From: Parabacteroides faecis
Lineage (GTDB): Bacteria; Bacteroidota; Bacteroidia; Bacteroidales; Tannerellaceae
Reading direction: 5' to 3'
DNA length: 64,000 nucleotides
Assembly (NCBI RefSeq): GCF_014647375.1
Contig: NZ_BMPB01000011.1
Location: forward strand, 1 to 64,000
The notes beneath the pieces were generated by a model. The model was given only the letters and a program-made list of their open reading frames with translations, searched no databases and was not told the DNA's origin. Each line of letters opens with the position of its first letter. Positions within the stretch are counted from its first letter, which is position 1. The position numbers were made by a program, and so were the translations under genes. This document shows positions 31,615 through 32,623 of this stretch, in pieces.

Positions 31615-32623
31615 TTATCCTTTCAGTGCTTCAAATATCAATCCGGATAACTCTTCAGCCAGTTCAGGATTATCATTGACGCATTGTTTTGCAGCATCGC
31701 GTCCCTGTCCCAGTTTTGTATCGTTGTAACTGTACCACGAACCACTCTTCTTGATGATGTTCAGATCTGCTCCCAGGTCGATGATCTCTCCGGCCTTGGA
31801 AATACCTTCGCCAAACATGATATCGAATTCAGCTTTACGGAAAGGAGGTGCCACTTTATTCTTCACCACTTTCACGCGAACCTGATTACCTTTCACTTCG
31901 TCGCCATCCTTCAATGTTCCGATCTTACGGATATCCAGACGTACGGAAGCATAGAACTTCAGTGCAAACGCCGATCTTATCACGCAACTGGTTGATAAAG
32001 ACACAAGTCGTGTTTGTCTTATTGATTGCACCGGTCAGTTTACGCAGTGCCTGTGACATTAAACGAGCCTGCAATCCCATCTTGCTGTCGCCCATATCGC
32101 CTTCGATTTCTGCTTTCGGTGTCAATGCCGCAACAGAGTCGATAACGATAATATCTACGGCAGACGAACGGATCAGCTGTTCGGCAATTTCCAAAGCCTG
32201 TTCGCCGTTGTCCGGCTGCGAGATCCATAAGTTTTCCACATCGACACCCAGTTTTTCAGCATAGAAACGGTCGAATGCATGCTCTGCATCGATAAATGCT
32301 GCGATACCACCCGCTTTTTGTGCTTCGGCAATTGCGTGGATTGCCAGGGTTGTCTTACCGGAAGATTCCGGTCCGTATATTTCGATAACGCGTCCTTTCG
32401 GATAACCGCCGACGCCTAAAGCGGCGTTCAGTGCGATGGAACCGGTCGGAACCACTTCGATTGCTTCTATACTTTCGTCACCCAACTTCATGATAGAACC
32501 TTTTCCGTAGTTCTTCTCAATCTTGTCCATTGCAGCGCGCAATGCTTTTAACTTGTCGGCATTCACAGCCGGTTTACCTTCCGGGGTTTTTCCCTCTTCG
32601 AATAAATTGTCTTCTTTTGCCAT
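31615..32623 (-). pseudogene. recA: recA, interrupted by an apparent 35-nt deletion
   Basis: RecA drives homologous recombination and SOS induction. The 5' frame (ATG at 32623) encodes residues 1-219 normally, with Walker A GPESSGKT at 84-91, then 13 off-frame residues and a stop. The 3' frame resumes at ALKFYASVRLDI and runs to the normal ...IFEALKG end at 31615. Between V219 and A the expected 12 codons (MFGNPETTTGGN, loop L2) are reduced to one T, at ~31966. Restoring 12 codons gives 347 aa, the normal length. Without L2 and the C-terminal domain the product should not bind single-stranded DNA. It may be a real mutation or an assembly error. Last of the CANSDH-bcp-recA operon. Confidence 0.93.

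What the first reader, a model, noticed from the sequence alone, without database searches (positions are those of the whole stretch)
31615..32623. recA broken by a 35-nt deletion that removes DNA-binding loop L2
The 5' frame is normal up to V219 and the 3' frame is normal from ALKFYASVRL, with only one T between them where 36 nt (12 codons for MFGNPETTTGGN) are expected. The inferred intact length is 347 aa, the standard size. Such a clean loss of a universal loop is either a recombination-deficient strain or a sequence error. It is too long for a homopolymer slip.
Basis: partly seen in the sequence, partly recalled or inferred. Interest (0 to 1): 0.78.

Follow-up and report, generated by a model that had tools for sequence, protein, structure and literature searches.

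The report
Broken recA recombination gene
The only recA gene found in this gut-type bacterium is cut in two by a clean 35-base deletion, so either the sequenced strain is a recombination-deficient mutant, a kind already known, or its assembly has lost 35 bases at this spot.

Summary
recA (minus strand, 32623 to 31615) reads normally to codon 219, has one base where its two nearest congeners have 36, and continues in another frame to the normal end. As it stands it encodes 219 RecA residues plus 13 foreign ones. No second recA was found in the 6.66-Mb, 99.99%-complete assembly, nor RecT or Rad52. Intact recA is the rule: of 66 family genomes, 62 hold the domain in one open frame, one is cut by a contig end, two have no match and one is this genome. 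Of 35 counterpart genes compared with a relative, recA alone is broken. Both pieces still look selected, so the break is recent. In E. coli numbering the loss is residues 202-213: the distal 8 of 15 L2 residues plus four, not the whole loop. Most likely it is a recent loss-of-function allele of the sequenced strain (about 0.65). An assembly error is the main rival (about 0.3). Only reads or PCR can decide.

The parts
31615..32623 (-). recA, broken: two RecA pieces in different frames
31967..32623 (-). N-terminal piece, codons 1-219 (Walker A GPESSGKTT, ends KIGV)
   Evidence: PF00154 positions 1-194, E 1.9e-102; TIGR02012 positions 1-197, 361 bits
31966..31967 (-). junction: one T left where the two nearest congeners have 36 nt; the 35-nt deletion point lies between 31966 and 31967
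   Evidence: alignment with L085 and L086; sliding check of the break point on L086
31925..31966 (-). frameshifted tail of the truncated product: 13 non-RecA residues and a stop
   Evidence: 232-aa ORF 31925..32623
31615..31965 (-). C-terminal piece (116 aa and stop), out of frame with the first
   Evidence: PF00154 positions 207-262 and PF21096 RecA_C; TIGR02012 positions 210-316
32629..33087 (-). AhpC-TSA/Bcp-type peroxiredoxin gene directly upstream, probable operon partner, intact
   Evidence: PF00578; 97% identical to G038 over its full length
33089..34282 (-). saccharopine-dehydrogenase-type gene upstream of it, intact; the order resembles the recA operon described for Bacteroides fragilis
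   Evidence: PF03435 and PF16653; 98% identical to G038 over its full length; operon in PMC3025348

Best explanation
The sequenced strain carries a recent loss-of-function allele of its only recA. Shown in the sequence: a single 35-nt deletion shifts the frame after codon 219, so translation would yield a 232-aa product with the ATPase core up to the first part of L2 but without the distal half of L2, the rest of the core and the C-terminal domain. Inferred: that product cannot form active filaments on ssDNA, so the strain would be deficient in homologous recombination and sensitive to UV, metronidazole and peroxide, as a recA mutant of B. fragilis is. Also inferred: the mutation is young, perhaps fixed in the isolate or in culture, because both pieces retain their conserved sequence.
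For: Clean gap with no other gap beside it. No second recA and no copy of the missing codons found in the assembly. Pieces under purifying selection: against L086, dN 0.017 and dS 0.63 for the N piece, dN 0.042 and dS 1.01 for the C piece. 34 of 35 counterpart genes unbroken, recA the exception. No N and no repeated k-mer of 21, 25 or 31 near the junction in 264 kb. recA loss is tolerated in the related B. fragilis (PMC3025348, abstract and Results read), and a natural recA frameshift exists in BCG Russia (PMC2483709, abstract and Discussion read).
Against: No reads were available, and one genome per species is held, so no second strain could be compared. I saw no other clean internal break in recA among relatives (the list was cut), and a lost recA is unusual outside small genomes: a survey found 20 of 2237 species without any trace of RecA, all with very small genomes (PMC6452273, section 17). 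The one other internal break that I saw, in G154, lies at N letters and looks like an assembly join. The deletion shows no microhomology on L086, and no Ku was found, so an end-joining route is not evident. The N piece has 3 to 7 more nonsynonymous differences to the outgroups L089-L094 than L086 has, which could mean relaxed constraint; the C piece does not show this.
Confidence: 0.65

Rival explanations
1. Assembly or consensus artefact: the strain has an intact recA and the 35 nt were lost in assembly, scaffolding or gap closing.
For: recA is intact in the relatives seen in full; recA loss is costly in B. fragilis (PMC3025348). In the assembly of G154 the RecA reading meets an N-containing codon after LRKLTGT, continues out of frame, and my L2 peptide patterns were not found in that locus: an assembly join can remove this very region.
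Against: No N in 264 kb of this contig and no repeated k-mer of 21, 25 or 31 near the junction there (one 15-mer is repeated), no unusual fold in the relative's DNA (z 0.54), no other broken gene among 35 compared.
Confidence: 0.3
2. Mixed population: some cells of the culture carry the deletion and the assembler chose that version.
For: No call supports it; a consensus sequence cannot exclude it.
Against: No second version of the site was found in the assembly; contamination estimate 0.74.
Confidence: 0.04
3. Working variant: ribosomal frameshifting at the junction makes a RecA lacking the distal L2.
For: Both pieces keep selected sequence.
Against: No relative seen in full needs a frameshift; the product would still lack Phe203 and the strongly conserved NPETTTGGN stretch; a recent origin explains the conservation equally well.
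Confidence: 0.01

Closest known systems
[quoted passage not shown] abstract and Discussion read)
   Same: A single small frameshifting change in recA with an early stop.
   Different: There a one-base insertion in the 5' part, with lack of RecA protein shown; here a 35-nt deletion inside the L2 codons, in Bacteroidales, with no bench data.
Bacteroides fragilis 638R recA mutant (PMC3025348; abstract and Results read)
   Same: Related organism, similar operon order (recA behind a Bcp/TSA gene and a further upstream gene), recA not essential.
   Different: Made by targeted disruption in the laboratory, with measured sensitivity.
RecA pseudogenes noted in a survey of 5563 genomes (PMC6452273; one passage and section 17 read)
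   Same: recA present only as a vestige or interrupted.
   Different: There the species with no trace of RecA have very small genomes; here the genome is 6.66 Mb and the break looks recent.

Membership tests
RecA recombinase (working member) | One open frame covering core and C-terminal domain | tested here: not met
   Two frames, 219 codons and 116 codons
RecA recombinase (working member) | Walker A and ATPase core | tested here: met
   GPESSGKTT in the N piece; PF00154 positions 1-194
RecA recombinase (working member) | Loop L2 complete (E. coli 195-209) | tested here: not met
   E. coli 202-213 missing (loop limits from a passage of PMC10954442)
RecA recombinase (working member) | C-terminal domain on the same polypeptide | tested here: not met
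   PF21096 lies in the other frame
natural recA-null mutant | recA disrupted and no second recA in the assembly | tested here: met
natural recA-null mutant | Disruption present in the DNA of the strain, not only in the assembly | not testable with these tools
   No reads held
natural recA-null mutant | Lack of RecA protein, UV sensitivity, no homologous recombination | not testable with these tools
   Bench work

The most novel reading that the evidence does not exclude
A large-genome Bacteroidales species that has lost recA in nature, not in culture, and persists without a RecA recombinase.
Probability: 0.12. Interest if true: 0.6.

Novelty: new member of a known kind. Interest (0 to 1): 0.25.

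Why it matters
If the deletion is real, this is a ready-made recombination-deficient gut-type anaerobe, and anyone using the strain for allelic exchange or DNA-damage work should know it. If it is an error, a genome that stands for its species carries a false pseudogene in a core gene. Neither changes what is known about RecA.

Tried and rejected
Second recA or the missing codons elsewhere in the genome: none. The third match is a weak hit below the cut-off (22.3 bits) in a 446-codon frame; that it is RadA/Sms is recall, and it was not studied further.

Substitute recombinases: RecT and Rad52 families not found; ERF and other phage recombinases were not searched. A RecX domain is present in an open frame; other RecA partners were not searched.

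Hairpin-driven loss: not supported. End joining by Ku: no Ku found. Microhomology: none on the relative's sequence; the strain's own ancestral letters are unknown.

Same allele elsewhere: an exact 29-base pattern over the junction and an exact 40-base pattern from this recA found nothing in viral contigs, and the gene had no match in phages. These say little, since the collections are not of host genomes.

Other broken recA genes in Bacteroidales: of 199 genomes 193 had a match (the match list was cut, so not every frame was seen). Five others with E of 3.9e-120 or weaker were looked at again: four lie at contig ends and one (G154) is interrupted at N letters. Four more with E between 2.9e-125 and 3.3e-132 (G146, G185, G219, G251) were not looked at. 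Of the six genomes without a match two (G121, G238), with G070 and G071, were searched again at 1e-6 and again had none; the other four were not.

Papers: four searches (the last found 0 papers, and one search listed 15 of 26) led to BCG strains, mainly BCG Russia, and to the B. fragilis mutant; no listed title or abstract start spoke of a Parabacteroides recA mutant. A fifth was for the limits of L2. Papers not named as read were seen as listings only; PMC4066776 was seen as one passage of its reference list.

One search translated L086 in a wrong frame and was not used. (repeat finder) reported no inverted repeat at 31430-31640, although sees an imperfect one.

Full report
What is there. On the minus strand, recA starts at 32623 and reads as RecA through codon 219 (31967). 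One T follows, then the rest of RecA in a shifted frame down to the stop at 31615. Translated as it stands, the gene yields 232 residues, the last 13 not RecA, with the stop codon at 31925-31927. Against the two nearest congeners in the collection (G013 and G038, 86% identical over the region) the site is a single gap of 35 nt, with no other gap in the 201 window bases aligned. Their T at this place is the third base of an AAT codon, which explains the one remaining T.

Which part is missing. The PDB comparison puts window residue 219 at E. coli residue 201 (1n03_A), so the missing codons are E. coli 202-213. L2 is 195-209, with Phe203 at its tip (one passage of PMC10954442). The deletion therefore takes 8 of 15 L2 residues, including Phe203, and four residues beyond; the first seven stay. 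The frameshift also removes the remainder of the core and the C-terminal domain from the polypeptide (PF21096 lies in the other frame).

Is it the only copy, and is it usual? In the assembly (6,663,845 bases, 33 contigs, completeness 99.99, contamination 0.74) the Pfam RecA model finds these two pieces and one weak hit below its cut-off; a DNA search finds only this locus, and a degenerate pattern for the missing codons finds nothing with up to 3 mismatches. Of 39 genomes of the genus, this one included, 37 matched the recA region; the two others are 80% and 83% complete. The 29 fetched loci of other species of the genus (L085-L113) all carry the L2 stretch; one of them (L111, G024) lies on a contig that begins inside recA. 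The 80 loci, the best 80 of 592, all gave a RecA open frame; in six of them my peptide pattern missed the L2 region. In the family, of 66 genomes at least 90% complete, 62 have the RecA domain in one open frame, one is cut by a contig end (G024), two have no match (G070, G071) and one is this genome. In a sample of 199 Bacteroidales genomes at least 95% complete 193 matched, but the match list was cut. Five others with E of 3.9e-120 or weaker were checked. Four lie at contig ends. G154 is interrupted: its reading meets an N-containing codon, goes on out of frame, and my L2 peptide patterns were not found in that locus of 3540 bases with 2 N. So a clean internal break without N is exceptional in what I could see, and assembly joins can damage the same region.

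Is the assembly poor here? In 380 kb of G038 there are 276 ORFs of at least 100 codons. Of 39 with a match above 55% identity in 264 kb of contig C11, 35 passed the limits of 65% identity and 70% coverage; the four dropped were below one of these. Of the 35, 34 are unbroken and recA is the exception; in the reverse comparison 35 of 35 are unbroken, which only shows that G038 is not broken there. An earlier comparison of 100 kb of G038 and 75 kb of G013 with 144 kb gave 66 relative ORFs, 61 unbroken over more than 90% of their length; the five others are recA twice, a low-complexity gene twice aligned over 52%, and one aligned over 85%. There is no N in the 264 kb, and no k-mer of 21, 25 or 31 near the junction is repeated there; one 15-mer is. 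The relative's DNA at the site has no unusual fold (z 0.54). This speaks against a generally error-prone assembly but cannot exclude a local error, and the sample is about 35 genes of the genome.

Age. Both pieces retain selected sequence: against L086, dN 0.0169 and dS 0.63 (N piece), dN 0.0418 and dS 1.01 (C piece). To the outgroups L089-L094 the C piece has fewer nonsynonymous differences than L086 has (9.5-12 against 15-20), while the N piece has more (15.5-22.2 against 11-15.7). To L095-L098 the C counts are nearly equal (17.5-18.5 against 17-18) and the N counts again higher, by 2 to 6.5 (all). There is no consistent sign of decay, so the break is probably recent whatever its origin.

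Compensation. RecT and Rad52 families were not found, nor Ku; a RecX domain is present and open. ERF and other phage recombinases were not searched. Programmed frameshifting has no support in any relative seen in full, and its product would still lack the distal L2.

What is known. A B. fragilis recA mutant lives but is sensitive to UV, metronidazole and peroxide, and recA there is transcribed with two upstream genes, one Bcp/TSA (PMC3025348, abstract and Results); a similar pair of upstream genes is intact here. BCG Russia is a natural recA frameshift mutant (PMC2483709, abstract and Discussion). A survey found that most genomes in which RecA was missed hold pseudogenes or introns, and that 20 of 2237 species lack any trace (PMC6452273, section 17). 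The genus name Parabacteroides comes from the finding and from titles of some related records; the genome itself is unnamed.

Verdict. Interest is modest, because recA-null strains are a known kind.

Noticed in passing
31490-31590: An imperfect inverted repeat (101 nt, predicted RNA fold -54 kcal/mol, self-match on the opposite strand at 75%; the repeat finder reported none) lies between the recA stop and the next gene. One search lists similar stretches at 7 other places of this genome and in 14 of 38 other genomes of the genus (at most about 10 candidates scored per genome); the match to G013 and G038 ends at the recA stop, so it is not behind their recA.
   Followed up: partly
8000-22000: A low-GC stretch (27-32%) with one counterpart above 55% identity (56%) among the G038 ORFs compared. 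It lies near a gene at 28112-29197 that I take by recall for a UDP-GlcNAc 2-epimerase; perhaps a variable surface-polysaccharide locus.
   Followed up: no
L153 (G154:C4:6459-6998): Another Bacteroidales assembly breaks inside recA at N letters, after LRKLTGT, with the L2 patterns not found in the locus; it looks like a faulty join.
   Followed up: partly
34982-36361: A long ORF rich in Ser, Gly, Tyr and Arg; only its first half (about 52%) aligns to the relatives' ORFs.
   Followed up: no
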